Assembly (NCBI RefSeq): GCF_003711515.1
Contig: NW_021167093.1
Location: 360,643-424,642 of the forward strand
DNA length: 64,000 nucleotides
Direction: 5' to 3'
From: Sodiomyces alkalinus F11
Lineage: Eukaryota; Ascomycota; Sordariomycetes; Glomerellales; Plectosphaerellaceae
Shown in pieces: positions 13,446 to 54,105 of the stretch; the stretch's first letter is position 1; each line of letters begins with the position of its first letter. Both the position numbers and the translations under genes were made by a program. The notes under the pieces were generated by a model. It was not told the DNA's origin and searched no databases. It worked only from the letters and a program-made list of their open reading frames with translations.

Positions 13446-13634
13446 TATCACGGCTTATCACAAGTTGTTCACGTATTAAGGCTGAAAATATAGTTTATTC
13501 GAACTAAGGAAGCAAAGGAGAAAAGGAAAAGTCTACGCGGTATATAGACGGCTAAGTATATATAAGATCGAAGGTCCGTGCTTTTTAGTCCCGGCCACTA
13601 CCGGGGACTATTCCGCGGGCTATAGCCCTTAATA
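13446..13634 (-). repeat. Gypsy-1 3' LTR
   Basis: The 189-bp LTR matches 20,298-20,501 in direct orientation but lacks about 15 bp near 13,567. It contains the GGGACTATTCCGCGGGC segment shared with the Gypsy-2 LTRs. Confidence 0.9.
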
Positions 13635-14049
13635 TACCCCCCCTCCTCCCCGCCGGAGGCGAGGTCGCGGTCGTGTTATAGTCGCCCGGTCATAACCTCG
13701 TATTACCCTAGCCTCCCCGCGTATAATCTGAAAATAGCCTCCTTTATTCGATTCTATTAAAGGCTCCCTTAAAGGGAGGCAATCCGTAGCAGCTAAGATC
13801 CTTTCAAGGCTAAAATAGTATAAAGAAGCTTTTATATAGCGGTGCTATCGTAAGCTCCTCGTCGGCGTATATACTCGTTATAAACGATATACCTACCAAA
13901 TATATAAGTAGGGGTTATTCCTTCCACCTAAATAGCGTAGGAAGGGTAGTAAAATAAACCTCCTACTATTCCTCGGTTTTTTTTTCTATTCTTCCCCCTC
14001 CACGGCTTCCTTTTTAACTAAAGGTGTTTTTTTTTAATTAGATTTCCTA

Positions 14050-15325
14050 TATTATAAATAGCCCTAAAGTGCTTCGTAGGTCCCGTGGCAGTATAACTAA
14101 TATCGCCGAGTAATAGCTTGTCTCCTAAGCCGCCTATATTCTCCTCGCTATAGGTTAGCACGCCCCTCGGCTATAATTCCGTACCGTAGCTAACTATTAG
14201 TAGATATCTAACTTCGCCTTACCTAATAAGCGACCTTATAAGAGTAATAGTAATAACGATATAAGTTCGCGGCCCTTATTACTACGGGTTATAAGGTTAG
14301 TCGTAACTAATAATAAGTAAACTCCGACCCCCCCTCCTACTAAGAAGCCATACGCCTCTAAAAACCCGCCCGGCCCCCGCCGCCTCGCCCCTTATATATA
14401 GTACGCTACCCGGTAATATAAATAAGAATATAGTATCGAGTATTACCACTAATCAGGCCCTAGTATAGCTAGGGCTAACGCTAAATACTACGAGTACTCG
14501 TACCGTACTTATAAGTATTCCGAGGTAGGCGTGCCGGTTATACGTATAGTAACTACGACTAATAAGTAATATAACTCCCTCCCGCCGCTTATAATACCGC
14601 TAATACCCTATAGGCTACCGCCTATACTATAAATAAAGATACCGACGATAAGGACATAAGTTATACCTACCCTTTACTTAGTAGCCTTTATACTAATTCT
14701 TCTGTGTAGAATCGCTACTAGTTCTAGAATACCTATAGTAACTTCTAAGTCGTCCTCGGTTAGGCTAAATCGGGTAAAAATATCGCTACTCCCTTATAGC
14801 CGCCCGCCCCGCCTATCGCCCCTACTCCCGCCGCCGCCGCTACTCTGGTCGCCCCCGCCCCTACCGCCGCTTAGCCGTCCGCCGCCCTACTATCCGCCGC
14901 CCCGCCCGCCACCACTAAGTCCTAAGTAAGCGTGGTATAAGGTCTTAATAATATCGTTACCTTTATAGGTAGTATAGACTAAGCGCTTAAGGATATATCG
15001 TCGAAACTAAAGGATACTAATAACACTCTCTCCGCTATATAGTCAGAGGTCCGTAATATCTTTAATAGCGCTAACCGCGTATATAAGTATTAAGTCGAGT
15101 TATACCCTATTCCTACTTATAGTACGCCGGAGGTAGCCCCTAAAGTCGCGCTTACCTTAGCTCCTCTATAGGAGGTTATTACTCCTCTTATTATTAATAG
15201 CGAGGAGGGTATAGCTACCTAGGCGGCTTAATTTAAGCCGGTAAAGGAGTTATAGGTAAATACTATTAAGGGCGGTATAGTCTCGTACAAGGAGGAGTTA
15301 AAGCAGGGGGAGATTATAAAGTAAT
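14050..15325 (+). pseudogene. Gypsy-1 antisense accessory open reading frame (unknown function)
   Basis: The frame runs opposite to gag-pol, between the chromodomain and the 3' LTR. Translation gives, in order: ISPSNSLSPKPPIFSS and VSTPLGYNS (about 14,100-14,180); a Pro/Lys-rich basic part with KNPPGPRRLAP (14,360-14,400); a Tyr-rich part (KYYEYSYRTYKYSEV, near 14,490); NKDTDDKDIS (near 14,640); F*VVLG*AKSGKN (near 14,740); an Ala/Pro linker (14,795-14,920); and a helical C-terminal part with SIDQALKD-like and KLKDTNNTLSAI segments, then LIINSEEGIAT and a stop near 15,324. The same protein order and many of the same residues occur at 38,011-39,255 in Gypsy-2, in the same antisense position. 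It is not a family I recognise. There are frameshifts and stops. Confidence 0.65.
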
Positions 15326-20501: not shown

Positions 20502-20506
20502 GTTAT

Positions 20507-23500
20507 AAATAGTAAACTTATAGCCGATATCCTTAAAGTAATTAAGAAAGTCCTTGCCTGGGTAGAACGTTAATTAGGCTATAAGGTGCGCGTTTTCGAA
20601 GCTGATACTAAGCTAACTTAATCCTATGATATTACACTGTTCCTGCGGGGAAAAGGTATTCTTGTAAAGATATCGGCCCCTAATACTGAATTATACAACG
20701 GGGGTGCCGAACGCGCTACTGCCGTGAGAATTTCGAATAGTTATACGATAAATATCCACGTAAAGTTCCCGCCGTTTATATAGCCTAAGCCTATTCCCAC
20801 GGCTACGTATGTTTATAACTGCAGGCTATAAAGGTAGTATGATAAGGATTAGAAAACGTTATATAAGGTCCTTTGTAATAAGAGGCCGATTTTATTATAT
20901 CTTCGAGCCTATAGTTATAAGGTGTATACAATGGCTAAGGACGCCTAAAAGGGTATTAATAAGCTGTTAAATCATATCGCTCCTTATACGTATATCGGCT
21001 ACTATATCGGCTACAATTCTACTAATATCTTCTATATCTAGGTGCCTGGCCTACGTCGTTATAACCGAATTATCCGTACGCGCGACGTGGACTTTAAGGA
21101 ACGCGTCTTTTTCGACGGCGATATTAATATCTTTAAAGACGATCTTTATTAATTAATAGAAGAGAAATGAGAAGACCTGATTAGTTAGATTAAATAAGAG
21201 AGGGCTGGAGAGTTACGGTCGTTTATAGACGTATAAGCTAAGGACCCCCCCCCCCTTTTTTTATATCACTGCTTATTTTAAACTTAATATGCCCCTGCCT
21301 TGGGCCTTGCCGGGATAAGACCCCCCTAGATCCCCTTCATTAGTATCGCCGAGGTTATAGTCCGTAAGACCCGGCCGTAAGAGGGTAAAGGAGGCTATCT
21401 TGACTCTAGATAGATAAGATTTAGATTATAAGCAGTGTAATTTAGCTAGTAAATCGCCTGATCACCGTCTATAGGCACCTAGTCTACTACTTCCCACTTT
21501 ACTAGAACTCCGTTATTAGTTATAGCGCTAATAGTAGCTATTATATTAGGAAATCGTGAATTCTTTACAGTTATAACCATAGGGTGTTTTATAGATAAAG
21601 TAACACGGTACTACAATACCCTTATACTTACAGCTATAAGGCTCCTTACACATAAAGGAGCGCGACTAATTCCGTAAAGAGATAGCTAGTAAAAAGACCA
21701 TTAAGTGGCCGTGTTTAACGCTAGCCGCTACGACCCGAATATACGCTCTATAGATAGAACTCCGCTAACTAAATTACGGTTCAAAAGGACTATAGCTATA
21801 ACGCTATAGCGGCGTTTATCGGTATTACTTAAGTCCACAGCCCTAGTAGCCTTAGAAAATCTAACCCCGGCGGTTATTCTAGCGTCCGAGAACCCCTCGC
21901 GATATACCCTTACACCCTTACAGTCACCTATTCCGATAGGCATAAGAAGACCACCTACGGAGCTATAAGAAGATAGGGTCGTAGATATAGGTATTAGCCT
22001 CTGTAATAGATAGAAATTAAGTGTCTAAACTCGATATACGTGATAATATATAAATTCGATAAGTATGGTTTTTTATATAAATATAAGACACGGCTTCTAG
22101 TACGCCGAAATTAGGAGTATTAATCCTCTTTCGAGGAGATATACATAACTATATAGGTCGGACGGTTATTCTGCGGGTTAATAGTAATCGCTGACTATTA
22201 TAATCTTATATTATTATAATTCGATATTATAAACGCGTTTATATACGCGCCCCTGTTCTATAATATCTTTATATTCCCGCTACTAGGGTTTCCGGCCCCT
22301 AGGAGTCGTTTATACCTAAAAAAGGCGTTATATAGTCTTAAGGAGTCTCTATTACTCTGGTAAAAGTACTTTTCGGCGATCCTTTTAGTGGACGGTTTCT
22401 ATATAATGCCGTAGGAACCGTATTACTTTCTGCGTCGCGGTTTAATTCTGTTTTTCTAAATCGACAATATCGTTATTACTTATAAGGAATAATATAAGGC
22501 TTGGATAAAGCAGGCTATTAATAACCTACGCCGCTACTATAACCTATAAGACCGCGATCTATTGTAGTAGTTCCTTAGTATTAAGGTTATTCGCGACCGT
22601 GCCGCCTATAAGATCTGGCTATCGTAACGCGACTGTATTATAAAATTAGAACGGCTATTAAAGCTAACCAGTAAGCATAGTAACACCTTTCGCCTAACGC
22701 ATCTAATTAAGATCGTAGAACTAATACCCTATTCAGGGACCTCGACTAATATTAAAAGCTATTAACGGAAGATAGGATCTATACTATATATAGCCGTGAT
22801 ATCGCGGCCTAATATCGCCTTTATAGTATTAAGGCTATACCACTTAATACTAATCCAGGGCCTATATACCACGAGGCTACCGATTATCTAATTCTCTATT
22901 TAATTAATAGCTAATCCCTTATATTGGAACTCAGGGATAGCGATACTATCAAAATCTATACTAACACCTCATTTACCAATAATACTCTTAATCGTAAAAG
23001 CAGCTAAGCGTTCATAATAAGGCTATTTAGTGGAACTATCGCGTAGTGCGCTAATAAGTAACATATAGTTATAATGTTAATAACTAAAGTAGAGCTATTA
23101 GCGGTAGTATAGGGAGTTAAAAAGGGTATCTTTATATAACGGCTATTATTTAGTATAGGCATAGAATTTAATGGTCCAGAAGTAAGGATCCTATACAATA
23201 ATAACTAAACGATTCAGTTAGTTAATTAAGAGATTATCACGTTAATAAGACGCCTCCGCCACGTCGATATCTACGACCACTAGTTACGTTAAGTAAAGGA
23301 ATAAGGGCAAATACTTATAATATATCTCAGGAGAGGGGGAAATAGTCGTAGATAGCCTAATAAAGACCTTATACGGCGAGAAGTTCGAGATATTTAGGTC
23401 CTAGGTAGGCGTGGTGGATAGACGGGAACGGTTATACTAAAATAAACTAGAGGAGATCCTGATAGAATATTTAGAGTAGCTAGAGAATAGATTTAAGGGC

Positions 23501-23590
23501 GGCTATAGGGAAGAGATTATATAGCTATTATATCTACCGGTTAGGAATAGCTTTAATCGTCTAACTAACGTTTAGGGCAATTAGGGGGTA
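20507..23590 (+). pseudogene. Copia-1 C-terminal integrase, reverse transcriptase and RNase H remnant
   Basis: This is the continuation of the Copia-1 polyprotein after Gypsy-1. The integrase Glu block is near 20,690-20,740 (NGGAERATAVRIS), followed by FKERVFFDGDINIFKDDL. The reverse transcriptase lies at about 21,900-22,650: FYNIFIFPLLGFPAPRSRLYLKK, then the catalytic box near 22,450 reads IDNIV instead of the usual VDDI. RNase H follows to about 23,450 (IKTLYGEKFEIFRS near the end). Copia-2 has the same blocks in better condition. Many in-frame TAG and TAA codons rule out activity. Confidence 0.83.
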
Positions 23591-23618
23591 TATCGAGTAG
23601 ACTATAGTGTTTTCGGTT

Positions 23619-23825
23619 CAGTAACTATTTAGAGTTTTAATATAGGTTTAGTAGAAGAGCTATAATATAGCTTAGAAGTTAGAGATTTAATTTTATTAGT
23701 GTCACTATATAATATATAAGAAATTCTAAACAAATAGAAATATATTAATTATAAATTAATAGATATAGGTATAGCTATAAAATAAGTACTAAAAATAAAT
23801 TTAACCCCTATACTATATATCTCTA
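23619..23825 (+). repeat. AT-rich inverted-repeat element, left part
   Basis: An AT-rich block begins CAGTAACTATTTAGAG directly after the Copia-1 LTR fragment. Its bases 23,645-23,690 (AGGTTTAGTAGAAGAGCTAT and following) pair with the complement of 40,145-40,190. It was split by Gypsy-2 at the CTCTA duplication. It is probably a non-autonomous DNA transposon (MITE-like). Confidence 0.6.
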
Positions 23826-24027
23826 TAATACGGGCTATAGCCCGTGGCATAGTCCCTGGTAGTAGCCGGGACTAAAAAGCACGGACCTCCTAGTAAGGTC
23901 TATACCATTCTATACGTATTTAGCCGCCTATATAGCGTAGACTTTTCCTTTCCTCCTTTTCTTCCTTAGTTCGAATAAACTATACTTTCGACCTTAATAC
24001 GTGAACAACTTTTAATAAGCCGTTATA
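23826..24027 (+). repeat. Gypsy-2 5' LTR
   Basis: The 202-bp LTR starts TAATACGGGC and ends GCCGTTATA (TCACA in the better-preserved 3' copy). Confidence 0.92.
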
Positions 24028-24114
24028 TATTCGAACTCGTAAGGTTATAAGCTTCGATGCTTATATAGAAGGAGGTCCTAGTCACTTCGCCCTAAGTCTA
24101 TTACGGGGCTAAGG

Positions 24115-24291
24115 TGCTATGCACATCTACTAGCTACCGGTACTATGGACAGATAAGTCAGTAAGCTGCAGAGGTATATTAGATACCTCTACTATAGAGC
24201 TCTGCGAGCTTATACTTAGCTAGATTACGATCTTTAATATCTTTATATCTTAACTATTCATATCGCCTATAACGCCGTATATGGTATATTA
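24115..24291 (+). repeat. Gypsy-3 5' LTR
   Basis: The 177-bp LTR starts TGCTATGCACATCTAC and ends GGTATATTA. The first TG is intact here and reads TA in the 3' copy. Confidence 0.92.
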
Positions 24292-33091: not shown

Positions 33092-33268
33092 TACTACGCA
33101 TATCTACTAGGTACTGGTACTATAGGCAGATAAGTCAGTAAGCTGCAGAGGTATATTAGATACCTCTGCCACAGAGCTCTACGAGCTTATACTTAGCTAG
33201 ATTACGATCTTTGACATCTTCATATCTTGACTGTTCACATCGCCTGTGACGCCGTATACGGCATATTA
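33092..33268 (+). repeat. Gypsy-3 3' LTR
   Basis: The 177-bp LTR starts TACTACGCATATC and ends GGCATATTA, preceded by the purine-rich tract GGGGAGGGCAT. Confidence 0.92.
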
Positions 33269-33589
33269 TAAGGGCAGGATATAGGGACCTTATATAATAA
33301 GATCGACAAACGCGTATTATAACATGTATAGGAAGCGGTAAGAATATATATCGCCCCTATTTATAATATACTTACTAGTATATAAGCAGCCCTTAAAAGG
33401 TCTTAACTTAACCCATACCTTATACCCACTAGGTACCCGATACCTACCCTAATCGTTACGTCCTCGCCCTTATCTAGGCCCCTAAAAGTAGAGACTATTA
33501 TCCCTATCCTATTACCGGCACCCACGCTCTTATACTATATATAGTAAGTTACTATCCCCGTAAAACTTAGTAGGAAACGTATAGACTAT

Positions 33590-34269: not shown

Positions 34270-37200
34270 CCCTTAATAGGAGGAATCCGAAAATATTTCC
34301 GAGGATATTAAAGACTCGGAAAAAGAGTAGCTCTAATACGAAATCGGGTACCGGAGCCGTTAGTGTAAGAGTAATATAAGTAGGAGGAGTTTAAACCGTT
34401 ATTATAGTCTTTACGTAGATATATAAGGGTATACTAAACGTGTTTTCGCGTACGTAATACTAGGTCTAGACTAGGATCTCTTCTTTAGGCTTTTATAAAT
34501 AGAATATAACGATATAGCCCTCTATACTAAGGAATAAAGGCTCTGCTACGGAGTAGCCGATATTAATATCCGATTTTAGGGGGAAGAAGAGCCGAAGGTA
34601 GTATAAGAGATCCGTGTTATAGTACTAATAATAGGGTCCGTGTTTATAGGACTATACCGATAATTATAGTATTAAAGGCGAAAAAGATAGGAAAAGGGCT
34701 TATAGGCTATATTATTAAAGAATATTAAAAAGGCTTTACGTATAAAGGAACTGGTAGACCCGCGAGAATATATCTCTAAAAGTATAATATAAGAGTTTAG
34801 CGATTTATTCGCGCACTTATACTCTATATGCCTACCCTTATACTAACCTAGCGCCGACTATAAGGTCTACTTATAGAAGGATAATAGTAATAATAAATAA
34901 GCCTTACCGTAGGGCCTACTCTATAATATATTATCTAAAAAGCTCTTTATATTACGGAAGACGATAACGGATCTAACAGATAAGGGATTTATTCGCGCGA
35001 GTAGCTTAGCTACTACCATGTCTATACTATTCGTAAGGAAGCTAAAAGACGGCCTCCGATTTTACTACGATTACTACGCCCTAAATATAATTACTTAATA
35101 AGATTGTTACCTACTCCTCCTAATTATAAAGATACTACGTAAACTAGCTAAGGCGAAGTGGTTTACTAAGTTAGACGTTATCGCCGCCTTTTATAAGATA
35201 CGGATAGCGCCGGGGCATAACTATAAGACCGTATTTTATACTCCGTTTAGACTATTCGAGTGGCTAGTATACCCTTTTAGGTTAACCGGCGCGCCTACGA
35301 TATTCTAACGATATATTAACTTATCGTTACGGGAGTTCCTTAACGATTTTATCTTTATATATATAGATAACGTTCTAATCTACTTAGACGGATCTTAAAA
35401 GGACTACGAGGAGAAGGTATGGCGAGTACTTAGTGCCTTTATAGACGCTAGTCTAAACCTTAACCTAAAGAAGTGCGAGTTTAGTATTAAGATAATTAAA
35501 TACCTAGGGTTTATCGTTATAGCGGAAAAAGGGGTATTTTATAACCCCGAGAAACTTAAGGGTATTATAGAATAGGAGGCGCTACTCTCCGCGATTAGGG
35601 TATAAAGTTTCTTAGAATTCGCTAACTTTTATAGGATATTTATCCGCGATTTTATAGCTATTATAGCGCTATTTACGGCCCTAACGAAGAAGAACGCCCT
35701 ATTCTACTAGGGCCCCCTTTAAGAGGTAGCCTTCTAGGAGCTAAAGCGGAAGTTCTAGGGAAAGCCTTACCTATAATAATAGTAACCCGGAAGGAAGACC
35801 TGGCTAGAGACGGACTACTTAGGGTTCGTGCTAGGTAGCGTGTTTCTATTGGAAGTTAAGTAAGGATATAGGTATATTGTTATATATTACTTACGCTGAC
35901 TTAAGTCCGCCGAGTATAATTACCCGATTTATAATAAGGAGATACTAGGGATTACAGACTACCTATAGGTTTAGAAAGCCGAGCTTATAGGTAATAACCG
36001 GTTTTAGATTTACTCCGACTATAAAGTGCTCGAATACGTTATAGCTAAGACGGCCCTAACTAAGCGCTAAAGTCGCTAAGCAGCTAAGCTTACCTAGTAT
36101 AATTTTATATTAGAGTACTAGTAAGGGGCTAATAATATTAGAGCTAACGCGCTTTTACGTTAAAAGTAGGATATACCTACGGATTTTTCTAATATCTAAG
36201 AATAAGGGAGGAATATCTAGATAATACCCGATATAGCTATCTCCCCCCGGGTATACCTAGTAAGAGTAATATTACCGGAGCTAACTATAGTCTTTAAAGT
36301 AGACCCTAACCTATAGCGCTTATAGGATAAAGCTAGGGCTATTAATAAATATTATTAAGGTGCCCTTACCGTAATAGTAGCGGGAGAGCAGAGCCTTCCC
36401 CCTAAGCTAAAGCTTAAAATATATATCGCCGAGTATAAAATCGACTAAGAATAGCTAATATTTCGTAACCGCCTATAAGTGCTAGGGGATAACGGAGATA
36501 GGGCGAGCTACTTATTATAAGGCCGCCTTATATAAGTAATCCACGACTTAGTAATCGGCGGACACTTAGGCAGGGATAATACTCTTATCCCAGTTACCCG
36601 TTAGTTTTTTTAGCCCGGTATAAATCAAGATATTAGAAGATTTATACGGAATGACGATATATACTAAGCTAGCCACGTTCAAAGGGGTACGAAGAGAGGA
36701 TTATTACGTCTACTCCTTATACTAAAACGAATCTTCTACGGATAAACTTTATAACGGACCTACGACCTACCCGCAAGGGTAAGTATATATACTTATAGGT
36801 AATTACCGACTAATTCTCGAAATCGGTAATACTTAAAGAGATAGATATTATAGATAGTAAAGCGTATACTAAACGGTTCTTACTATACTATCATAGGTTT
36901 TATGGAAGACTAACGTCTATTATTAGTAATAGGAGGTTAAACTAAACTAGCCGCTTTTAGCGATACTTCTATAAACTCGCGGGTATTAAATAGCGACTAA
37001 GCATAATATACTACTCTTAAATAGATAAAGGTCCTAAACGTATTAACTAGAAAGTCTAAGCCTATTTACGGGCGTATACCTATTATACCTAAGATAATTA
37101 AAACATGCTATTATTAGTAGCGTAACTAGCCTTAAATAACCGGATAAACTCGATAATCTAAATAAGCCTATTCTTCTTATAACACGGGTACTACACGAAT

Positions 37201-37840: not shown

Positions 37841-38010
37841 AAATTTAAGGAGGGGCCGATATAGTAGCGTGGAGGATAAGAATAGTAAGCGAGGATATAT
37901 TAGGGTTACCGTCCCCCTCTACTTAATCTATGAGTAGAGAAAAAGAAGAGTAAAAATAAAACCTAGCGCTAAAAATACTAAAATCGGCTTATTCCTCCGT
38001 ATCCTTATTA

Positions 38011-39255
38011 TCCCTCCTTTTACGAGGTTATACCGGCCTTAGTAGTACCCACCTTCGACTCCTTTACCGGCTTAAAATAAGCCGCCGAGGTAGTCGCGAC
38101 CTCCTCGCTATTAATAATAAGAGGAGTAATAACCTCCTAGGAAAAAGCCGAGGTAGGTATAGCCTCGGAGGCTACCTTTAAAGCACCGGCCGGGAGAGGG
38201 TATAATATAGTAAAATACTTATAAAAGCGTCTCCTATAGTAGGAGAGGCCATATACCTCCGTCTTTATAAAGGCTATATTATCGTTACGGTCGTCTAGCT
38301 TATACGTAACGTCCTTAAGAGTCTTATCTATGCTATATAGGGACACGGCGATATTATTAAATACTCGTAGTAGGCCCGCCTAGAACGCGGTGTTAGTAGG
38401 GGCGGCGGCGGGAGGCGGTATAGTAGCGGCAGGCTAAGCGATAATAGGGGGCGTAGTAGTAGGAGGAGGCGGCGCGATAAGAGCGGGAGTAGGGGCGATA
38501 GTGGGGGAGGGAGCTTATAAAGAACCTATAATGCTTTTACCCAATTTAGCTTAACCGAGAGCTACTTAGAAGCGACTATATACCTCCTAAAACTAGTAGT
38601 GGTTCTATATAGGCTATTATTATAGACGCTACTAGGCGAAAAGCGGATATAAACTTATATCTTTATCGTTAGTATCTTTATTTATAGTATAAGCGGTATC
38701 CTATAGGGCGTTAGCAGCGTTATAGACGGCCGGGGGGGGGCTATATCGCTTATTAGTCGCGATTACTATATATAGAACTAGTATGCTTACCTTGGAGTAT
38801 TTATAGGTATAGTAGGAGTACTTATAATACTTAGTATCGGCGCGAGTAACGTCGGGGCCTAAGTAATTATAATACTCGACGGTATACTCCTATTTACACT
38901 ACTAGGTAGCGTACTAGGCATAAGGGGCTAGGCGGCGAGGTCCGGGCGGGTTCTTAGGCGCGCGGAGCTTCTTCGGAGCGGGGGGTCGGGGTCTACTTAG
39001 CGTTAGTAATAGCCGACCTCGTAACTAATAGTAACATGGGCTAACCTTATATCGTTATCGCTACTGCCCTTATACGGGCGTTTATTAGGGGAGGCGTAAT
39101 CGGATATCTACTAACGGTTAGCTACGGCTCTAAACTATAGGCGAGGGGCGTGCTAACTCACCATAGGGAGAATATAGGCGGTCTAAGTAATAAGCTTTTA
39201 CTCGGTGATATTAGTTATACTACTACGGGACCTATAAAGTATCTCGCAGCTACTT
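38011..39255 (-). pseudogene. Gypsy-2 antisense accessory open reading frame (unknown function)
   Basis: This is the counterpart of 14,050-15,325, again antisense to gag-pol and between the chromodomain and the 3' LTR. On the minus strand: ISPSKSLLLRPPIFS and VSTPLAYSLEP (about 39,215-39,110); a basic Pro-rich part; VEYYNYLGPDVTRADTKYY (about 38,885-38,830); TAYTINKDTNDKDIS (about 38,700-38,655); F*VALG*AKLGKS (about 38,570); a Pro/Ala/Thr linker (38,510-38,400); and a 69-residue open stretch 38,346-38,137 (MSLYSIDKTLKDVTYKL...), then EVITPLIINSEEVATTSA. The C-terminal part looks helical. Both copies keep the same order. Differences are mostly C/T and G/A, with a few one-base gaps. I cannot name a domain. 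Confidence 0.65.
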
Positions 39256-39654
39256 ATAATATAGAAAATCTAATTAAAAACAAAATAGTTAAAAGGAAGC
39301 TGTAGAGGGGGAAGAAAATAGTAAAAAACGAGGAATTGTAGGAGGTTTATTTTATTACCCTTCCTACGCTATTTAGGTAGAAGGAATGACCCCCCGTTAT
39401 ATATTCGGCAGGTATATTATTTATAACGAGCACGTACGCCGGCGAGGAGCTTAGAATAGCACCGCTATATAAGAGCTCCTTTATACTATTTTAGCCTTAA
39501 AAGAATCTTAGCTGCTACGGATTACCTTCCTTCGAAGGAGCCTTTAATAGAATAGAATAAAGGAGGCTATTTTTAGATTATACGCGGGGAGGCCAGGGTA
39601 ATACGAGATTATAATAACACGACCACGACCTCGCCGCCTCTAGCGGGGGTGATA

Positions 39655-39858
39655 TATTACGGGCTATAGCCCGCGGAATAGTCCCCGGTAATAGCCGGGA
39701 CTAAAAAGCACGGACCTCCTAGCAAGACCTGTGCGATTCTATACGTACTTAGCCGCCTATACACCGCGTAGACTTTTACTTTCCTCCTTTCCTTCCTTAG
39801 TTCGAATAAACTATATTTTCGGCCTTAATACGTGAACAACTTTAGATAAGCCGTCACA
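39655..39858 (+). repeat. Gypsy-2 3' LTR
   Basis: The 204-bp LTR starts TATTACGGGC and ends GCCGTCACA, keeping the CA terminus. Confidence 0.93.
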
Positions 39859-43459: not shown

Positions 43460-46400
43460 CCTACCTTTACACTACCGATTGAGGAGCGATCTAGCCGCAC
43501 CGATATAGCGAGTCTATTCTATAACCTCTTTATAACACTTTACGACTATTTACAATCCTATTATATAACCGCTAAGATATCGTATCTTAGCCCTATTACG
43601 TATAAAACCTATAAGGATTAGGAGCTCTAGTAACGCCTATACGAATCGGTTACTACCTATAATAACGTATAGCGGTTTCTCCGCCCAGTTAATCCGACTT
43701 AAACCCCCGAAGAGCCTATAATACCGAATTACGACTCTTTCCCCTCTATAACGCCTAGGCATACCCCTACGTAATATCTTAACCTTACGGATACCGGCTA
43801 GAGGGCGTACGATATCGAAATCGCGCGCTAGAAGATCCTATAAGCGTAATACGATAGCTACCTAAAGGGGATTAATGCTATACTAACCTAGTAGGTTAAT
43901 ACTATCGACTAAAGCCGTAGATAACTACTACGAGGAGGTATACCCCGCGAGGTATATAAAGCTGTTAAATGTAATACGGAATAATACCTAGCTACCCGCT
44001 GAACCGATACCCATAAAGAGTACATTAAGTATACTCGTTACTCTACGAATAGCCTTAAGAAGCTCGGGGAGTGGTTAGATAAGTGGCAGCTACTACTATA
44101 AAGCTATAAAGATACCGGTTCGAAGCCCGTCACGTATATATAGATTATAGATTTCTTTAGAGGTATACGCCCTTATACTGGCCGCGATTAGATAGAGGCC
44201 GAGGGACGCCTTATAGATAACTAGGTAGTTATACCCGAAGACCTTTACACCCTTGGTCAGACATATATTAATACTAGACTTAAAGACTAAGGAAAACGCG
44301 GTAGCCACCGCACTATAGTATTCTCTACACTACACACTAAAAGCGAAAAGGGCGAGGATACCTTAAATACTACGGCTAAGCCTAAAAAGGGTGGCTATAG
44401 AAAGAATAACGCTAAGAATCCTATAGCCACACCTTCTACTACTTTAGCTAACCGTTCCTCTTCTAAACGCGGCTAATCTACTCTATAGAGAGGGCAGATC
44501 TACTGCGTATACGCTATACCTAGCCACGATAGTAACGCCTACTTCTATCTATTCCCGGATACGGTATATAACGACTAAACGCCCTTTAAAAGCACTAAAA
44601 TAACCGTCTAACGGATCCTTAAATATAACCCCGCTCTACGTGCGGAAGTAGAAGAACTACGCGCCGTAAAGAAGGTGAAGAAGGATATAAGCCGGGACTC
44701 TGTATAGCTTAAAGAGGCGTGACTCGACTATAGCAGCGTCTGTAGCGGCGTCTCCCACGCTATTACCTTTATAGCGGGTACTACTACTAGTTACCCTCTT
44801 CGAACCTCTGCTATCCTCGATTCCGGTACCACGATTTATATTTTTAACGAATTTTCCTGTTTTTCTAATTTTATACCTACCGCGCAGAGAGACTACGTAA
44901 TAGCCGGTAGTTTATCCCTGCCTATTAAAAGTTACGGTAACGTGACCGTGAGACTAAATGGACTAATAGAAGGCCTCGATTTTAGACTATTAAACGTTAT
45001 ATACTACAAAGATTTTACCTATCATTTAATCTCAAACTAACGGTTACGACTACGAGGATACTAGTAGAATTAGAAGCCACTAAATAATTACCTTTAATAT
45101 ACCGATAGATCTATTTTATTCTAGCTAAGTTATCACTTCGATTAGACCGTTATCGAGTACGTGCCCTGCGATTCTGACCTCTCTACGGCCGCTCTTCTAG
45201 GCTCCTCTTCTTCGTCGTCTTCCACCCGAAAAGCCGTCCATAAATCGATAATACGTTATCTAAGCACTACGGAGGGCATCTTATAGCATCTACGGCTAGG
45301 GTATACTAGCCCTAAACCACTACGGCACCTAGAAGAGTAGACGCAGGGGGCCAAAATAAAGGGACTAATAACTATCGACTACGAGGCCTACAAGCTTATA
45401 AAGATCAAGCGACACGTTAGCAGGCACCCTTATAACGCACCTACTACTACAGGGGAAGAGTAAGCGATTAATTTCACGGATTTTAACTAAACGTCCGACA
45501 GGGACTCGCGGTTTATATTTTTCACCGACCGTTATAGTGGTTTTACGGCCACCTACGTTATAAAGAGTAAGCTAGCAGTAGATATCCTTACAATAATTAA
45601 GGAATTCCTCGCCTAAGTGGACCGTTAATTAGGTTATAAGGTACGCGTTTTCGAATCTAATAATACGCTAACTTAATCTAACGATATTATCCTCTTCCTA
45701 CGCGAGGAGGGTATTCTATTAAAGGCATCCACCGCCGACACTTAAGCGCAGAATAGGGGTACTAAACGTGCTACTGCTGTGGTTATTTCGAAGGGTTATA
45801 CAATAAATATCCACGCTAAGCTACCGCCGTTTATATAGCCTAAGGCTATTCCCACGGCCGTATACGTCTATAACCGGACGCTATAAAGGCAGTATAATAA
45901 TAAGGATTGAAAAACGCTATACGAGGTCCTCTTTAGAAGGAAGCCGATTTTATTATATCTTCGAGCCTACGGCTATAAGGCGTACGCAATAACCAAGGAC
46001 GGCTAAAAGGGCGCTAATAAGCTATTAAATCGTATCGCTCCTCGTGCCTATATCGGCTACCTTATCGGCTACGTTTCCACTAATATTTCCGTATCTAGAT
46101 ACCAGGCCGCCGTAACTATAACCGCGCTATTCGTATGTGCCATATAGATTTCGACGAATATGACTTTTTCAACGGCGATATTAACGCCTTTAAGGATAAC
46201 CTCCGTTAATTAACCGAGGAGTAATTAGAAGACCTAATTAGTTAGATCGAGCAGGAGAGGGCTAGAGATTTATAGCCGTTTACAGACGTATAAGCTAAGG
46301 ACCCCCCCTTTATATAACTGCTTATTTTAAACTGTTTATAGCCTTAGATCCGGGGCAAAACGCCCCCGGATCCCCTTCCTCGACGGTTTTACCGTTAAGG

Positions 46401-48640
46401 TTATACTCTGTAATACCCGGCCGTAAGGGGGTAGAAGTGGCTAGATAAAACTTAGGTCACGAATAGCACGATTTAGCGAGTATAGCGCCTGATTACCATC
46501 TATAACCACCTATTCCGCTACTTCCCTCTTTACTAGTAGCCCCGCCGTCGGTTATAGCGCTAATAGTAGCTGTTATATTAGGAAATCGTAATACCCCTGC
46601 GGTTACGGCCGTAGGGTTTTAGGATAACGGAACACGGTACCGCGATACCCCTATAGCGACGGCTATAGAGCTCCTATTAAATAAAGGAGCGCGACTAATA
46701 TGGTAAGGAGATAGCTAGAAAAGAGACTATTAGGTTACTGCGTTTAACGCTAGCCGCCACGCCCCTACTATACGCATTAAAGATAGGACTCCGCTAACCA
46801 AATTACAGTTAAAAAGGACCACACCTATAACGCTATAGCGGCGTTTATCGCTATTACTCGAACCCACGGCCCTAATTGCTATCTCGGAAAATCTTACCCC
46901 GGCGGTAGCCTTAGCCGCGAAGATCTATTATAAAGACCTCCCCCCTCCTCCGAAGAACCCTCGCGATATACCCTTATACCCTTACGGCCACCTATTCCGA
47001 TAGGCATAAGAAGACTACCTGCGGAGCTATAAGGAGATAGGATCGTGGATACGGGTACCGGCGTCCGTAATAGATAGAAATCAGGTTCTGAACTCGATAT
47101 AGGTGATAATATATAAATTCGATAAGTATAGATTTCTATATAAATATAAGGTAAGGCTAGTAGTACGAGGAGATTAATAGTATTAATCCTCTCTTAAGGA
47201 GACGCATGTAGTAACGCTAGCCGGACGGTTATTCCGCGCGTTAATAGCTATCGCCGCCCGTTTTAACCTTACGCTACTATAATTCGATATAGTAAACGCG
47301 TTTATATATGCGCCCCTCCCCCACGATATCTTTATATACCCGCCGCTAGGCTTTCTAGCCCCTAAGAGTCGTCTTTACCTGAATAAGGCGTTATATAGAC
47401 TTAAGGAGTTCTTATTACTATAGTAAAACCACTTTTCGACTATCCTCTTAGCGGACGGTTTTTAGATAGTGTCGTAGGAACCGTGTTATTTTCTACGACG
47501 TGGTTTAATTCTATTCTTCTACATCGACGATATCGTTATTACTTATAAGGAATAATATAAGGCGTAGATAAAGTAGGCCATTAATAACCTATAACGCCAC
47601 TATAACCTAAAAGGTAGCGAACCTCTATAATAGTTCCTTAGTATTAAGGTTATTCGCGACTATACCGCCCGTAAAATCTAGCTATTATAACACGACTACG
47701 TTACTAAGTTAAAACGCCTATTAAAGCTAAATAGTAATAGTAAGCATAGTAATAACTATCGCCTAACGCACCTAATTAAAATCGCAGAACTACTGCCCTA
47801 TTCAGGGACCTTAACGGATATTAAAAGCTATTAACGGAAGATAGGATCTATACTATACGTAGTAGTGATATCGTGGCCTAATATCGCGTTTATAGTATCT
47901 AGGCTATACCGGTTTAACGTTAATCCAGGGCCTATTCACTATAAGGCCGCCGATTATCTAATCCTTTATCTAATTAATAGCTAATCGTTTACGTTAGAAT
48001 TAGGGGGTAACGATACTATCGAAATCTATACTAATACCTCGTTTACCGATAATACCCTTGATCGTAAGAGTAGTCAAGCCTATATAATACGCTTATTTAG
48101 CGGTATAATCGCGTAGCGCGCTAATAAGCAGGATACAGTTATAATATTAATAACGAAAACAGAGCTATTAGCGTTAGTATAAGGTACTAAAAAGGGTATT
48201 ATTATATAACGCCTATTACTTAGTATAGGAGTTGAATATAACGATCTGGAATTAAGGATCCTATATAATAATAACTAAACGATTTAATTAGTTAACTAAG
48301 AGATTAGTACGCTAATAACACGCCTCCGTTATATCGATATCCACGGCTATTAGTTACGTTAAGTAAAGGAATAAGGGCAGATAATTATAACGTACATCAT
48401 AAGCGCGGAGATAATAGTAGACGGGCTGATAAAGACGTTATACGGCGAGAAATCTAAGATATTCAGGTCCTAGGTGGACGTGATAGATATACGGGAACGG
48501 TTATAACAGCTAGAGGAAGTCCGGATAGAATATTTAGAGGACCTAGAGGATAAATTTAAGGGCGGCTATAGCGAATAGATTATATAACTAGATTATCTGC
48601 CGATTACAAATAGCTTTAATCGCCTAACTAACGTTTTAGG
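43460..48640 (+). pseudogene. Copia-2 gag-pol polyprotein remnant
   Basis: Gag lies at about 43,460-44,700 (HKEYIKYTRYSTNSLKKLGEW near 44,010; a basic KPKKGGYRKNNAKN segment near 44,375). The protease active site ILDSGTTIYIF is at about 44,813-44,845. The GAG_pre-integrase segment (LRLGYTSPKPLRHLEE) is near 45,287-45,335. The integrase core starts TSDRDSRFIFFTDRYSGF (about 45,490-45,545) and ends near 46,260. The reverse transcriptase is at about 47,190-47,700, with LFFYIDDIVITYKE near 47,512-47,550. RNase H follows, with NTSFTDNTLDRKS near 48,035 and IKTLYGEKSKIFRS near 48,440. Stops are mostly TAG or TAA in place of Gln or Trp. The 3' end is marked by the purine tract ATTAGGAGG before the LTR. 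Confidence 0.88.
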
Positions 48641-48654
48641 GCGATTAGGAGGTA

Positions 48655-48859
48655 TATCGAATAGACTATAGTCTTTTTCGGTTATATAATGGGCCGGATT
48701 ACTAAAAGTATAATCCGGGTAAACGCTTACAGAATCTACACTATATAAAATACGGTAGCAGCGTTTCCCTGACGGTCCGACACAGTTATAATTATATATA
48801 ATTGCCTCAATTAAATTTTGACCTATTTTATGACGATTTTGACTACGCTTTAGCTGACA
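48655..48859 (+). repeat. Copia-2 3' LTR
   Basis: The LTR starts TATCGAATAGACTATAG and ends GCTGACA. Here the first, inward-facing half is mutated and the second, gene-facing half keeps its CA and TG steps, the reverse of the 5' LTR. Confidence 0.95.
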
Positions 48860-48949: not shown

Positions 48950-51686
48950 ATGGCTTCCCGTATGCACGAAGCAACTCCCTCCATTTATTGAGCATCCTGA
49001 CTTACCATGACGTGTAGTGAAGCAATTTATTCGCAACGTGCGTTCCGCGAAGACCATCGCCGACGAGCGGGCTGTTATTCAAAAGGAAAGCGCATCGATT
49101 CGCGCAAGCTTCAGGGAGGAGAGTCACGACCATGGGACCCGGTAAGCTCCAACTCCTTCTCGGCATATCTTGGACTTCAGCTTGTCAGTCGAAGCAGGTA
49201 CTGATAGAACCAGACGAAACAATGTAGCGAAGTTGCTCTACCTCTTCACCTTGGGCGAGAGAACGCACTTTGGCCAGATAGAATGTCTCAAACTTCTCGC
49301 ATCCACCCGATTTGCGGACAAGCGACTCGGTCACCTCGCCACTAGTCTGTTGCTAGACGAGAATCAGGAAGTATTGACCTTGGTTACCAACTCCCTCAAA
49401 AAGTACCAACCGCATGGTTCCATACAGCTGTCTTTTCCGCCAGTACGCTGATGAGAATCCAGTGACCTCTCCCACTCGAATCAGTACGTCGTCGGACTCG
49501 CCCTATGCACGCTGGGCAACATTTCTTCGGTTGAGATGTCGAGGGATCTTTCTTCCGAAGTCGAAATATGTGTTAATACCTCCAACCCGTACATTCGAAG
49601 GAAAGCGGCCCTCTGTGCCATGCGGATCTGTCGAAAAGTCCCTGACCTGCGCGAACATTTCATCGAAAAAGCGAAGCATTTGCTATCTGATCGCAACCAT
49701 GGTGTCCTTCTTTCCGGTTTGACACTGGTCACCAGTCTCTGTGAGGCAGACGAAGAACAAGGCGGAGAAGACGGCGTTGTCGACAACTTCAAGCAGTTTG
49801 TCCCTCAGCTCGTTCGCACATTGAAAGGGCTGGCCACCTCTGGCTATGCGCCGGAACATGACGTTGCTGGCGTTACAGACCCATTCCTGCAAGTCAAAAT
49901 TCTGCGTCTCCTCAGGGTACTTGCCATAGGTGATGCACAAGTCAGCGAGCAGATCAACGACATATTGGCTCAGGTGGCGACCAACACTGATTCGTCCAAG
50001 AACGTGGGCAATTCCATTCTATACGAGGCTGTCCGAACTATTCTGGATATCGAGGCCGATTCTGGCCTTCGCGTGCTTGGAGTCAATATTCTGGGTAAAT
50101 TCCTGTCAAATCGGGATAATAACATTCGCTATGTCGCCCTGAACACCCTCACCAAAGTGGTTGCCATCGAACCGACCGCTGTTCAAAGACACAGGAACAC
50201 AATCCTGGAATGCCTCAGAGATCCCGACATCAGCATTAGGAGACGGGCCCTCGACCTTAGCTTCACTCTCATCAATGAAAACAATGTTCGCGTTCTAATT
50301 CGGGAACTGCTAGCTTTTCTGGAGGTAGCAGACAATGAGTTCAAACCTACAATGACGAGCCAGATCGGTATCGGTGCCGACAAGTTCGCCCCCAATAAGC
50401 GCTGGCACATCGACACGATGTTGCGAGTGCTGATGCTTGCAGGGAACTATGTCAAAGAACCCATCCTATCGTCCTTCATCCGGCTGGTTGCCACTACCAC
50501 GGAGCTACAAACCTACGCAGTCCAGAAGCTCTATACCAGCCTGAAGAAGGATATCACGCAGGAAAGCTTGACACAGGCCGGGGCCTGGTGCATTGGTGAG
50601 TATGGCGATGCCTTGCTACAGAACGGGCATTACGAAGAAGAGGAGCTAGTGCAAGAAGTCAGAGAGCATGAGATTATCGATTTATTCTCCTCGATTCTCA
50701 ACAGTAGTTACGCGACCCAGGTATCGACCGAGTACATCGTAACTGCCCTGATGAAGTTGACGACCCGGCTATCGGAACCCACACAAATTGAGAGGGTCAG
50801 GCGGCTACTTCAGTCAAACCAGACAAGCCTCGATGTTGAAGTGCAACAACGTGCGGTGGAATACGGGAATCTCTTCTCCCACGATACAATTCGCCGGGGA
50901 GTACTCGAGAAAATGCCACCCCCTCAGATCAAAGAAGAGTCGCGGGTCCTTGGCCGAGCCACTACGAAGAAAGCGAATAAGGAGTCTCACAGGAAATCGA
51001 AGATTCTTAAGCCAACTGAAGAAGACCTACTGTTTGGTTTCGCCGACACACCTGCCACTGCCCATGGGTCTACCAAGAAGGCCAGCGCAAATCTACTCGA
51101 CGACATCCTTGGTACTACTGAAACCTCCTCATCGGCACCTACCCCAACCTCTCCTACACCCCAGCAATCCAATGTCGCCTCCATCATGGATCTATTTGGT
51201 TCAAACTCGGAGGCGCAGACTGCACGGTCAGATGTACCCAGCGGCGCTATAAACTCGGGTAACTCGGCAACGCCAGCAGCGCATGTTCCAGCTGAGATCC
51301 CTTGCTACAATTCCAATGACCTCCAGGTAATTATGCAGGTCCAGCGCAATGCCGAAGGGCTAGTCCAGGCGACTGCCCGGTTTCGAAACACATCTGGCGC
51401 TGTTACACTCTCTGGCGTGGGCTTGCAAGCTGCAGTACCCAAGACGCAGAAGCTCCAGCTTACGGGCATCTCGAGCCCTCACCTGGATCCTGGGGCTGAG
51501 GCAACCCAGGTGATGAGAGTGTCCGGGGCAAAGGGGGTAAGTTGTAACGAATCAAGTATCATTCAAGGCGCGTCCTTTGCTTACTAAATTCTTCTCCAGG
51601 CACTGAGATTACGCCTGAGAATCCAGTTCATCCACCCGTCTGCTGGTCAGTTAATGGAGCAGGTAAATTGGACAGAACCATCTTGA
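48950..51686 (+). CDS. apl4: AP-1 clathrin adaptor complex subunit gamma (gamma-adaptin)
   Basis: Large subunit of the AP-1 complex, which links clathrin and cargo on trans-Golgi and endosomal membranes. Five exons: 48,950-48,959, 49,018-49,141, 49,214-49,402, 49,463-51,536 and 51,600-51,686, joined to 827 codons plus stop. The four introns (58, 72, 60 and 63 bp) start GTATGC, GTAAGC, GTACCA and GTAAGT and end in AG, with branch-like CTGAC, CTGAT and ACTAA sequences. Exon 1 encodes only MAS plus one base, and splicing gives [20 protein letters not shown], the usual fungal start. The adaptin N-terminal trunk spans about residues 1-600 ([20 protein letters not shown] near 47-66), the hinge about 600-715 with clathrin-box-like LLDDIL (652-657), and the gamma-ear about 716-827, ending VNWTEPS. 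Length is normal. Composition is unlike the flanks and shows no RIP. The symbol follows yeast APL4. Confidence 0.96.
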
Positions 51687-52481: not shown

Positions 52482-53420
52482 TTATCTTACCGAAGGACTA
52501 GCGCCCTTAGATTAAAGCTGTGAGGACTATTATATACTCCTATAATATAGCTAACCTCGTTAATCCTGACCTTAAAGAGGTTAAACCACGCCGTATCTTA
52601 ACCGATCTACTAAAGCCGCCTATGTTCGCAGAACAATAAAATACCTTTAATTAGGATATACTATTTAAGATCTACTAGCTAGAAGAGGATCGTTATAAGG
52701 CCGAATAAAGGGGCCTCCACGCTCCACACGACTTTATCGCGAAGACTATTAGTCCTACCTTGAAGAATTAATACGTCGGTAAATAGGAAGTAAGGGATAT
52801 ACTATAAGCCCTTAAGACACACCCTAAGCCTATAAACGCCGGCTAGAAGCTACTATTAAGAGATATTAGGACGAATACCTCTAAAACGTTAGGCATATAC
52901 CCTATAAGCGCTAGCTAGAAGGTCTTCTTAAGCTATACCGCGACACCGAGACGTATAAAGTTCGTGCTAATAATACTAAGAAAGATTAGATTAACGGCTT
53001 TTTTAAAGCTATCGGGAGCCTAGCCCCGTAATAGTCCGAGGCACGGTATATAAAGCTTCTACGCCCAGAAGAAAATAGCCTACCTTTTATCTAATCTATT
53101 ATAAAGGAGTATACGATATAGCTTTATCACCGCTAGCTACACCGACTCGATAAAAAGCCTACTATATTATTATTTTATATGGCAACCTTCCTAGGAAAAG
53201 ATAAAGAAGGTAAGTAATAGCCGGTATAATAAGGATAACAGGACACCTAATAGTCCTCTCTATAGTAGAAGAAGGAATGGCTTTATAACTATCGTGATAA
53301 AAAGAGAAGCAAATATAATTATAAGCCCTTATAGAAGTGCCCTAACGTTAACAAGGCATATAGAAATAAGGGGCATATACCTTTAAAAGAGATCTTAGAA
53401 CGCTACGACCGTACTATCCA
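52482..53420 (+). pseudogene. Copia-3 gag remnant
   Basis: The plus strand from about 52,480 reads LPKD*RPLD at the usual N-terminal position of a copia gag. A shift later gives IANLVNPDLKEVKPRRILTD, KIY*LEEDRYKAE and HDFIAKTISPTLKN. It ends with a zinc-knuckle-like KCPNVNKAYRNKGHIPL (about 53,335-53,385), where CPNC...GH is the family pattern. It is cut at 53,421 by the R repeats, and no pol follows. It is a different family from Copia-1/2. Confidence 0.7.
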
Positions 53421-54105
53421 ATATACCCTATCTAGGCATATCTCTAGCCAGCCAGTATCATAGGACCTAGAGGTTCTAGGATTTAATATACCCTATCTGG
53501 GTATATCTCTGGCTAGCTAGTATTATCGGACCTAGGGATTCTAGGGTTTAAGCGGCGATCTTTACTATAGTAAACAGGGTATAATAAAGATAGTTTATCT
53601 AAACTAAGGGGCAAAGTCCTGAACTAATATATCTATAGGGAAACCCCGGGGATAGTCTAGTCTCCTTACTATAGCCCAATAATACCTAGTTCCTACTACG
53701 TACCTCCTTAGTATATTGTTTTTATAATATACCCTCGTAGAACACAGTTCTTACAGTAGACCCCCGTAGTACCTAGTATCCGTGGTATACCCCCGTGGAA
53801 TGCGGTCCTCACGGTATACTCCCGTGGAACTCGGTTCCCGCGGTATACCCCGGCAAGGGGTGCTTTCTATAATACGCCGTGGGCGTATTATTATCAAACC
53901 CTAGGTAATATGCTCTATCCAGGCATATCTCTGGCCAGCCAGTACTCTGGAACCTAGAAGCTCTAGGATTTATTATACCCTATCCAGGTATATCTCTAGC
54001 TAGCCATTACTATTAGACGTAGGGATCCTAGGATTTAAGGGGCGACCTTTACTATAGTAAATAGAGTATAATAAAGATATCTTCTCTAAACTAAGGAGGA
54101 GGTAG
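53421..54105 (+). repeat. Dispersed repeat R, two dimeric copies (R2 and R3)
   Basis: The block ATACCCTATCCAGGTATATC, then CTAGCCAGCCAGTA-like and GGACCTAGGG segments, occurs four times: at about 53,421, 53,486, 53,908 and 53,973. The second and fourth are followed by CTTTACTATAGTAAA and GTATAATAAAGATA. So two dimers of about 190 and 195 bp are separated by about 295 bp that contain a minisatellite. The R1 copy at 10,694 is related. Confidence 0.7.
53729..53858 (+). repeat. 29-bp minisatellite inside the R repeat
   Basis: Four full units of 29 bp (starting 53,729, 53,758, 53,787 and 53,816) and a partial fifth. Each starts ATACCCCCGTGGAA or a variant and ends CGCGGT or a variant. Differences are mostly transitions. 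Confidence 0.85.

What the first reader, a model, noticed from the sequence alone, without database searches (positions are those of the whole stretch)
38011..39255. A Ty3/gypsy family with a conserved antisense accessory frame between pol and the 3' LTR
Gypsy-1 and Gypsy-2 each carry about 1.7 kb after the chromodomain. In both, the readable protein frame is on the strand opposite to gag-pol (14,050-15,325 plus in Gypsy-1; 38,011-39,255 minus in Gypsy-2). The two proteins share order and many residues: VSTPL, NPPGPRRLAP versus NPPGPRRLAP, KYY-YSY-TYKYS, NKDT-DKDIS, LG-AK-GK, an Ala/Pro linker, a helical C-terminus and LIINSEE. Codon-level agreement on the antisense strand in two independent insertions suggests selection for protein before RIP. 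Antisense frames are described for some plant Ty3/gypsy elements; I do not know a named counterpart for this one. Function is unknown: it could be a captured host gene, an env-like or a regulatory protein.
Basis: partly seen in the sequence, partly recalled or inferred. Interest (0 to 1): 0.82.

Follow-up and report, generated by a model that had tools for sequence, protein, structure and literature searches.

The report
Antisense split gene in fungal retrotransposon
A family of fungal jumping genes carries, on the strand opposite to its replication genes, an extra protein gene that appears to be split by four small introns, which hints that the backward orientation can let a jumping gene keep an ordinary split gene.

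Summary
The antisense frame is real, but it is not one continuous ORF. In 38 aligned copies it resolves into five exons and four introns of 49-60 nt, opposite to gag-pol, with GT...CTRAY...YAG-type signals. RIP left a pattern at the 5' splice sites: AT after T (93 AT, 1 GT, 1 TT), GT after other bases (47 GT, 6 AT). Removing introns 2 and 3 gives frame in 35 of 36 copies each (unspliced 9 and 18); intron 1 only 19 of 36. Exon 2, Cys-rich, shows purifying selection in the antisense frame (transversion omega 0.12); exon 3 and the C-terminus show none. A second family in the genome, opposite a pol about 45% identical, carries the same gene; a third probably does. [quoted passage not shown] plant Grande, Retand). 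The introns, Cys-rich domain, age and a history partly unlike that of pol look new within the searches made. No transcript was available; the function, probably a nucleic-acid-binding regulator, is inferred.

The parts
39162..39242 (-). exon 1a of the antisense gene; candidate start codon at 39242 (ATA in 32, ATG in 3, GTG in 2, CTA in 1 of 38 copies)
   Evidence: the segment 39230-39162 is 69 nt in 36 of 36 copies; omega for exon 1 as a whole 0.53 [0.29-1.01], not conclusive
39108..39161 (-). intron 0 (54 nt): GTGAGT in this copy, CTAAC box, TAG
   Evidence: box 14 or 15 nt before the end in 33 of 38 copies
39051..39107 (-). exon 1b (57 nt)
   Evidence: 57 nt in 35 of 36 copies
38993..39050 (-). 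intron 1 (58 nt here, 51-60 in copies)
   Evidence: 5' end GT in 5 of 5 copies after C, AT in 33 of 33 after T; CTRAY 14 nt before the end in 36 of 38
38791..38992 (-). exon 2: Pro/Lys-rich start with a poly-C tract, then an eroded Cys/His-rich domain
   Evidence: omega 0.12 [0.07-0.21] for 38791-38965; ten near-exclusively Tyr/Cys columns; multiple of three in 18 of 36 copies
38741..38790 (-). intron 2 (50 nt; 49-51 in copies)
   Evidence: frame kept after removal in 35 of 36 copies, unspliced 9 of 36
38659..38740 (-). exon 3 (82 nt here with one extra base; 81 in most copies)
   Evidence: 81 nt in 34 of 36 copies; omega 1.07, no selection signal
38605..38658 (-). intron 3 (54 nt; 52-56 in copies)
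   Evidence: frame kept after removal in 35 of 36 copies, unspliced 18 of 36
37985..38604 (-). exon 4: helical start, Ala/Pro linker, helical pair, variable C-terminus; 3' end uncertain
   Evidence: omega 0.58 [0.36-0.97] in 38180-38380, 0.90 in 38011-38180
39650..39858 (+). 3' LTR of Gypsy-2 (TG...CA), purine-rich tract just before it
   Evidence: end set by the CA motif, BLAST homology reaches 39854
35102..36601 (+). pol with reverse transcriptase and RNase H domains, sense strand
   Evidence: RVT_1 4.5e-19, RT_RNaseH 1.3e-13
14069..15316 (+). same antisense gene in Gypsy-1; introns 14150-14203, 14261-14320, 14525-14574, 14656-14709; 3' LTR 13450-13640
   Evidence: coordinates transferred through the alignment

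Best explanation
An antisense, intron-containing protein gene has long been part of a Ty3/gypsy lineage in this fungus. Shown by sequence: five exons and four short intron-like modules on the strand opposite to gag-pol, between pol and the 3' LTR; purifying selection on the Cys-rich exon 2; the same gene in a second family beside its own diverged pol, and probably in a third. Inferred: it is transcribed from integrated DNA, from a promoter in the roughly 400 nt between gene and LTR or in the LTR, and is spliced by the host. The element's genomic RNA carries the introns as reverse complements, which are not spliced, so reverse transcription copies them unchanged; this explains how introns persist in a retroelement. 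Inferred, about 40% likely: the product is a zinc- and nucleic-acid-binding regulator with a helical C-terminus, acting on the element's own transcription or RNA. Inferred origin: capture of a convergently oriented host gene. Confidence is about 0.9 for an antisense spliced coding gene, lower for the rest.
For: Splice signals at four places, with CTRAY 14-18 nt before the 3' end. RIP pattern at 5' sites: after T 93 AT, 1 GT, 1 TT; after other bases 47 GT, 6 AT. Frame kept after removal of introns 2 and 3 in 35 of 36 copies each, against 9 and 18 unspliced. Exons 1b and 3 of constant length divisible by three in 35 and 34 of 36. Conserved splice modules: five antisense start sites, none on the sense strand, none on either strand of pol. 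Exon 2 omega 0.12, lowest of six frames. Second family with pol C-terminus 45-46% identical and modules beside exon 2; probable third family.
Against: No RNA evidence. Exon 3 (1.07) and 38011-38180 (0.90) show no selection; exon 1 (0.53 [0.29-1.01]) is inconclusive and sense +1 is 0.48 there; in the linker 38380-38480 sense +1 (0.36) is lower than the antisense frame (0.53). Intron 1 frame test is weak: 19 of 36 against 15 unspliced, blamed on a variable poly-C tract. Pol gives 0.86 in its own frame, so the positive control is blind. The splice pattern was written after seeing the introns, and copies are related, so counts are not independent. Third-family matches are weak (E 0.006 to 0.09). 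No homologue or domain names the function.
Confidence: 0.7

Rival explanations
1. The antisense transcript itself is what matters: it pairs with genomic RNA and feeds silencing or represses translation, and the open frame is secondary.
For: Proposed for plant antisense extra ORFs in PMC7264820 (passages read). No transcript or protein data here to exclude it.
Against: Exon 2 is constrained at amino-acid level (omega 0.12) and frame is kept through length changes in introns 2 and 3, which an RNA-only role does not need.
Confidence: 0.1
2. A captured host gene that is only a passenger, with no role for the element.
For: Introns resemble those of ordinary fungal genes; no function is known; exon 3 and the C-terminus show no constraint.
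Against: The gene occurs in a second family with a diverged pol, probably a third, and exon 2 is constrained. No intact host copy turned up: every row listed (88 and 98 matches, some of them pieces of one copy) has an in-frame stop.
Confidence: 0.12
3. The frame and splice-like signals are by-products: an old non-coding region whose sequence happens to look antisense-coding, or a sense-strand coding region whose shadow is seen.
For: In exon 2 sense frame +2, which shares silent positions, also scores low (0.25 [0.13-0.54]); sense +1 equals or beats the antisense frame in exon 1 and the linker.
Against: Antisense exon 2 is lower (0.12). Conserved splice modules occur only on the antisense strand, the RIP pattern at 5' sites is specific, and splicing fits frame in introns 2 and 3.
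Confidence: 0.06

Closest known systems
brtn of Boty-like Ty3/gypsy elements, Botrytis cinerea (Zhao et al. 2011, Virology 417:248; not held, seen only as cited in PMC7264820, PMC8365987, PMC4227169)
   Same: Fungal Ty3/gypsy element with an extra antisense gene between pol and the 3' LTR.
   Different: brtn sequence and intron content were not available, so homology is untested; the passages read mention no introns or Cys-rich domain.
Plant antisense extra ORFs: Grande gene23, RIRE2, Retand with TRP28 domain (PMC7264820, PMC11963269; passages read)
   Same: Antisense gene between pol and 3' LTR, retained in most copies, proposed regulatory, for Grande nuclear.
   Different: Plant elements; no sequence link tested beyond Pfam, which gave no TRP28 or other credible match here; the word intron does not occur in the main text of either paper.
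HBZ of HTLV-1 (named in PMC11963269, passages read; that HBZ is made from spliced antisense RNA is recalled)
   Same: Antisense gene at the 3' end of a retroelement with a regulatory product.
   Different: Unrelated element and protein; only a resemblance in layout.

Membership tests
Antisense additional ORF between pol and 3' LTR (aORF-3R) | Lies between pol and the 3' LTR | tested here: met
   pol end and LTR start flank it in the window and in the copies with both flanks
Antisense additional ORF between pol and 3' LTR (aORF-3R) | Antisense to gag-pol and coding | tested here: met
   exon 2 omega 0.12 on the antisense strand; splice modules only antisense
Antisense additional ORF between pol and 3' LTR (aORF-3R) | Present in most copies of the family | not tested
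   copies were collected by the antisense region itself, so elements lacking it would not have been seen
brtn of Boty | Sequence homology to brtn | not testable with these tools
   brtn sequence not held; no homologue in the protein database
Ty3/gypsy | RT and RNase H followed by integrase | tested here: met
   RVT_1 and RNase H in the window; integrase zinc-binding domain above cut-off in two of three sister copies, core domain below cut-off
Chromovirus (chromodomain Ty3/gypsy) | Chromodomain after integrase | tested here: inconclusive
   no chromodomain match in the window or three sister copies; SH3_Tf2-1 below cut-off; RIP damage limits this
Spliceosomal introns of ascomycete type | Short, GT(RAGY)...CTRAY...YAG | tested here: met
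   with GT read as AT after T as RIP would leave it
Spliceosomal introns of ascomycete type | Spliced transcript observed | not testable with these tools
   no RNA data held

The most novel reading that the evidence does not exclude
The antisense strand of an LTR retrotransposon can shelter a multi-intron gene through repeated reverse transcription. The gene can be expressed only from integrated DNA in the nucleus, and it behaves as an old modular accessory locus that is exchanged between element lineages while its Cys-rich core stays under purifying selection. In 32 copies its median transversion distance is 3-5 times that of pol (0.074 in exon 2 and 0.112 in exon 4 against 0.022), and exon-2 distances do not correlate with pol (-0.02).
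Probability: 0.35. Interest if true: 0.78.

Novelty: new variant of a known kind. Interest (0 to 1): 0.62.

Why it matters
Passage through spliced RNA removes introns, so a multi-intron gene kept in antisense gives independent evidence that such frames are real genes and suggests how they arise: capture of a gene in opposite orientation. A 2020 review calls the origin of most antisense extra genes unknown (PMC7264820, section 6 read). The base before each 5' splice site predicts its fate under RIP, a practical way to recognise gene structure in ruined repeats. The open question of what these accessory genes are and where they come from becomes testable by looking for the same split gene, undamaged, in other fungi.

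Tried and rejected
Single-frame reading of 38011-39255: rejected, because the coding signal changes frame near 39,000 and frames shift between exons in many copies. Pol as positive control for omega: uninformative (0.86 [0.71-1.06] in its own frame), probably because pol copies diverged recently. Pfam on the window and Gypsy-1 frames, 39 exon-2 members and 28 exon-3/4 members: nothing credible; the best is E 0.025 in one member, and DEC-1_N in 7 of 28 members at best 0.049. Protein database: nothing at E 0.1 for the exon-3/4 alignment (7,995 candidates scored) or exon 2 (5 candidates), although the same database returned 142 pol relatives at E 1e-10, the best 44% identical, from Hirsutella rhossiliensis. 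RIP damage of the queries limits this negative. Viral contigs: 143 pattern matches, no relative. Structure of exon 4: mean pLDDT 50.7, so no fold search was made. Literature listings showed no report of introns in an antisense gene of a fungal gypsy element; I saw listings only, except for the papers named as read in passages, and most subscription papers, Zhao 2011 included, are not held. Exchange between lineages: clusters by exon 4 differ in exon 4 (0.060 within, 0.150 between) and LTR (0.028, 0.063) but hardly in pol (0.057, 0.065); exon 2 correlates poorly with exon 4 too (0.17), so noise in short stretches may add to the effect, some truncated pol copies inflate the pol mean, and no formal recombination test was run.

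Full report
Setting. The window lies in a 43.4-Mb, 22-contig genome with heavy RIP: in the aligned region TpG counts 775 against TpA 12,991. Gypsy-2 has reverse transcriptase and RNase H in one sense frame (RVT_1 4.5e-19). Two of three sister copies show an integrase zinc-binding domain above cut-off, and sister copies show core and Tf2-1-like SH3 domains below it; no chromodomain was detected. The 3' LTR is 39650-39858. The region 38011-39255 has 45 matches in the genome, a lower bound. I examined 41 copies: 39 fetched loci, Gypsy-1 and Gypsy-2. 38 were aligned from the end of pol to the LTR; L013, L039 and L041 were left out for missing flanks, and L040 and L044 were dropped from the tests of introns 2 and 3 and of exon lengths (36 copies). 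Searches with single exons listed 88 exon-2 and 98 exon-4 matches, every row with an in-frame stop; some rows are pieces of one copy.

Coding test. RIP makes transitions useless, so only transversions were counted, in all six frames. In exon 2 (38791-38965) the antisense frame has omega 0.12 [0.07-0.21]; the other antisense frames have 3.06 and 1.74; the sense frames have 3.21, 1.96 and 0.25, the last sharing silent positions with the antisense frame. Exons 2-4 together give 0.44 [0.34-0.61]. Exon 1 gives 0.53 [0.29-1.01] with sense +1 at 0.48; exon 3 gives 1.07; 38180-38380 gives 0.58 [0.36-0.97]; the linker gives 0.53 with sense +1 at 0.36; 38011-38180 gives 0.90. Pol in its own frame gives 0.86 [0.71-1.06], so the control is blind, probably because pol copies diverged recently (all). 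The coding case thus rests on exon 2 and on the splice and frame evidence.

Introns. The antisense frame jumps between copies at fixed places. There lie modules with a GTAAGT-like 5' end, a CTRAY box and a YAG-type 3' end: 39161-39108, 39050-38993, 38790-38741 and 38658-38605. The box is 14-18 nt before the end in 33 of 38, 36 of 38, 29 of 36 and 33 of 36 copies. By my arithmetic on the exon frames they fall between codons (phase 0), apart from the poly-C tract at the start of exon 2 and the extra base in exon 3 of the window copy. A scan with a pattern written after seeing them finds five antisense start sites conserved in at least 30% of copies (one of them, 38804, probably an alternative start of intron 2), none on the sense strand and none on either strand of pol in 35 copies. 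Splicing arithmetic gives frame in 35 of 36 copies at intron 2 (unspliced 9) and 35 of 36 at intron 3 (unspliced 18). At intron 1 it gives 19 of 36 (unspliced 15), which I attribute to the variable poly-C tract. Exon 1b is 57 nt in 35 of 36 and exon 3 is 81 nt in 34 of 36 copies; exon 2 is a multiple of three in 18 of 36. Copies are related, so these are not independent events.

RIP as a witness. RIP turns TpG into TpA. Over the four introns the first two bases are AT in 93, GT in 1 and TT in 1 of 95 cells with T before them, and GT in 47 and AT in 6 of 53 cells with another base before them (Fisher p about 1e-30 without the TT cell, copies not independent). Intron 1 shows it within one site: GT in 5 of 5 after C, AT in 33 of 33 after T. 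This is what one expects if these positions were GT before RIP.

The protein. The Tyr-rich block looks like an eroded Cys/His cluster: in exon 2 ten columns are almost wholly Tyr or Cys, with Cys still present in 1 to 15 of 37-39 copies. After it come exon 3, a short helix, an Ala/Pro linker and a helical pair (AlphaFold mean pLDDT 50.7, helices at 70-76). Pfam gives nothing credible, and no homologue was found in the protein database.

Age. Two weak exon-2 matches (E about 6e-4) led to a second family (L048, L049). Its C-terminal pol lies on the opposite strand and is 45% (172 aa) and 46% (137 aa) identical to that of the window copy. Its exon 2 is 34-44% identical to family-1 copies. It has intron-like modules directly before exon 2 in both loci and after exon 3 in L048, none on the other strand. 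A search with L049 led to a probable third family (L050, L051; E 0.006 and 0.09; 31-34% to the window copy at E 0.008 and 0.015). It has modules in the places of introns 0 and 1 under a slightly looser pattern scanned on one strand only. Only 901 bases of each could be fetched, so its pol was not seen. The gene is thus older than the split of at least the first two families.

History. In 32 copies the median transversion distance is 0.022 for pol, 0.074 for exon 2, 0.112 for exon 4, 0.045 for 39256-39640 and 0.025 for the LTR. Rank correlation with pol is -0.02 for exon 2, 0.20 for exon 4 and 0.45 for the LTR; exon 2 with exon 4 is only 0.17. Silent transversions per site are about twice those of pol (0.050 against 0.025). 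The antisense gene seems to have a history partly its own, which fits exchange between element genomes during reverse transcription; this is an inference without a formal test.

Comparison. Antisense extra genes between pol and the 3' LTR are a known class in plants, and one fungal case, brtn of Boty, is cited in PMC7264820, PMC8365987 and PMC4227169 (passages read); Zhao 2011 itself was not held. In PMC7264820 and PMC11963269 the word intron does not occur in the main text, and the former recommends looking for antisense and spliced transcripts. The arrangement is therefore known. The multi-intron structure, the Cys-rich domain, conservation across families and a partly separate history are what the listed searches did not show.

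Mechanism. Sense genomic RNA carries these introns as reverse complements, so they should be neither spliced nor lost on reverse transcription (established knowledge of splicing and retrotransposition); an antisense transcript made from integrated DNA could be spliced. I put about 0.9 on an antisense, spliced, protein-coding gene and about 0.4 on a nucleic-acid-binding regulator acting on the element.

Noticed in passing
49536-51587: An intact 683-aa ORF with Adaptin_N (1.7e-106) and adaptin C-terminal domains in a stretch of about 51% GC: a normal host gene in the middle of RIP-damaged repeats.
   Followed up: partly
10687-10815, 53420-53612, 53907-54096: A repeat unit of about 65 bases, found once or in head-to-tail copies; nature unknown.
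   Followed up: no
20502-23618 and 45557-48683: A 3.1-kb direct repeat, 78% identical, not identified.
   Followed up: no
23811-24291 and 33094-33269: A copy of the Gypsy-2 LTR and adjoining sequence lies about 8.8 kb upstream of where the rest of Gypsy-2 starts, as if its 5' end had been split by an insertion.
   Followed up: partly
L050 and L051 (G000:C3:2846350-2847250, G000:C8:1573870-1574770): Probable third family of the antisense gene, 82% identical to each other; only 901 bases each were seen, so it is unknown whether they lie in elements.
   Followed up: partly
38966-38992 and the same place in other copies: A poly-C tract of very variable length at the start of exon 2, which spoils the frame in half of the copies: slippage, or conceivably a frame switch.
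   Followed up: partly
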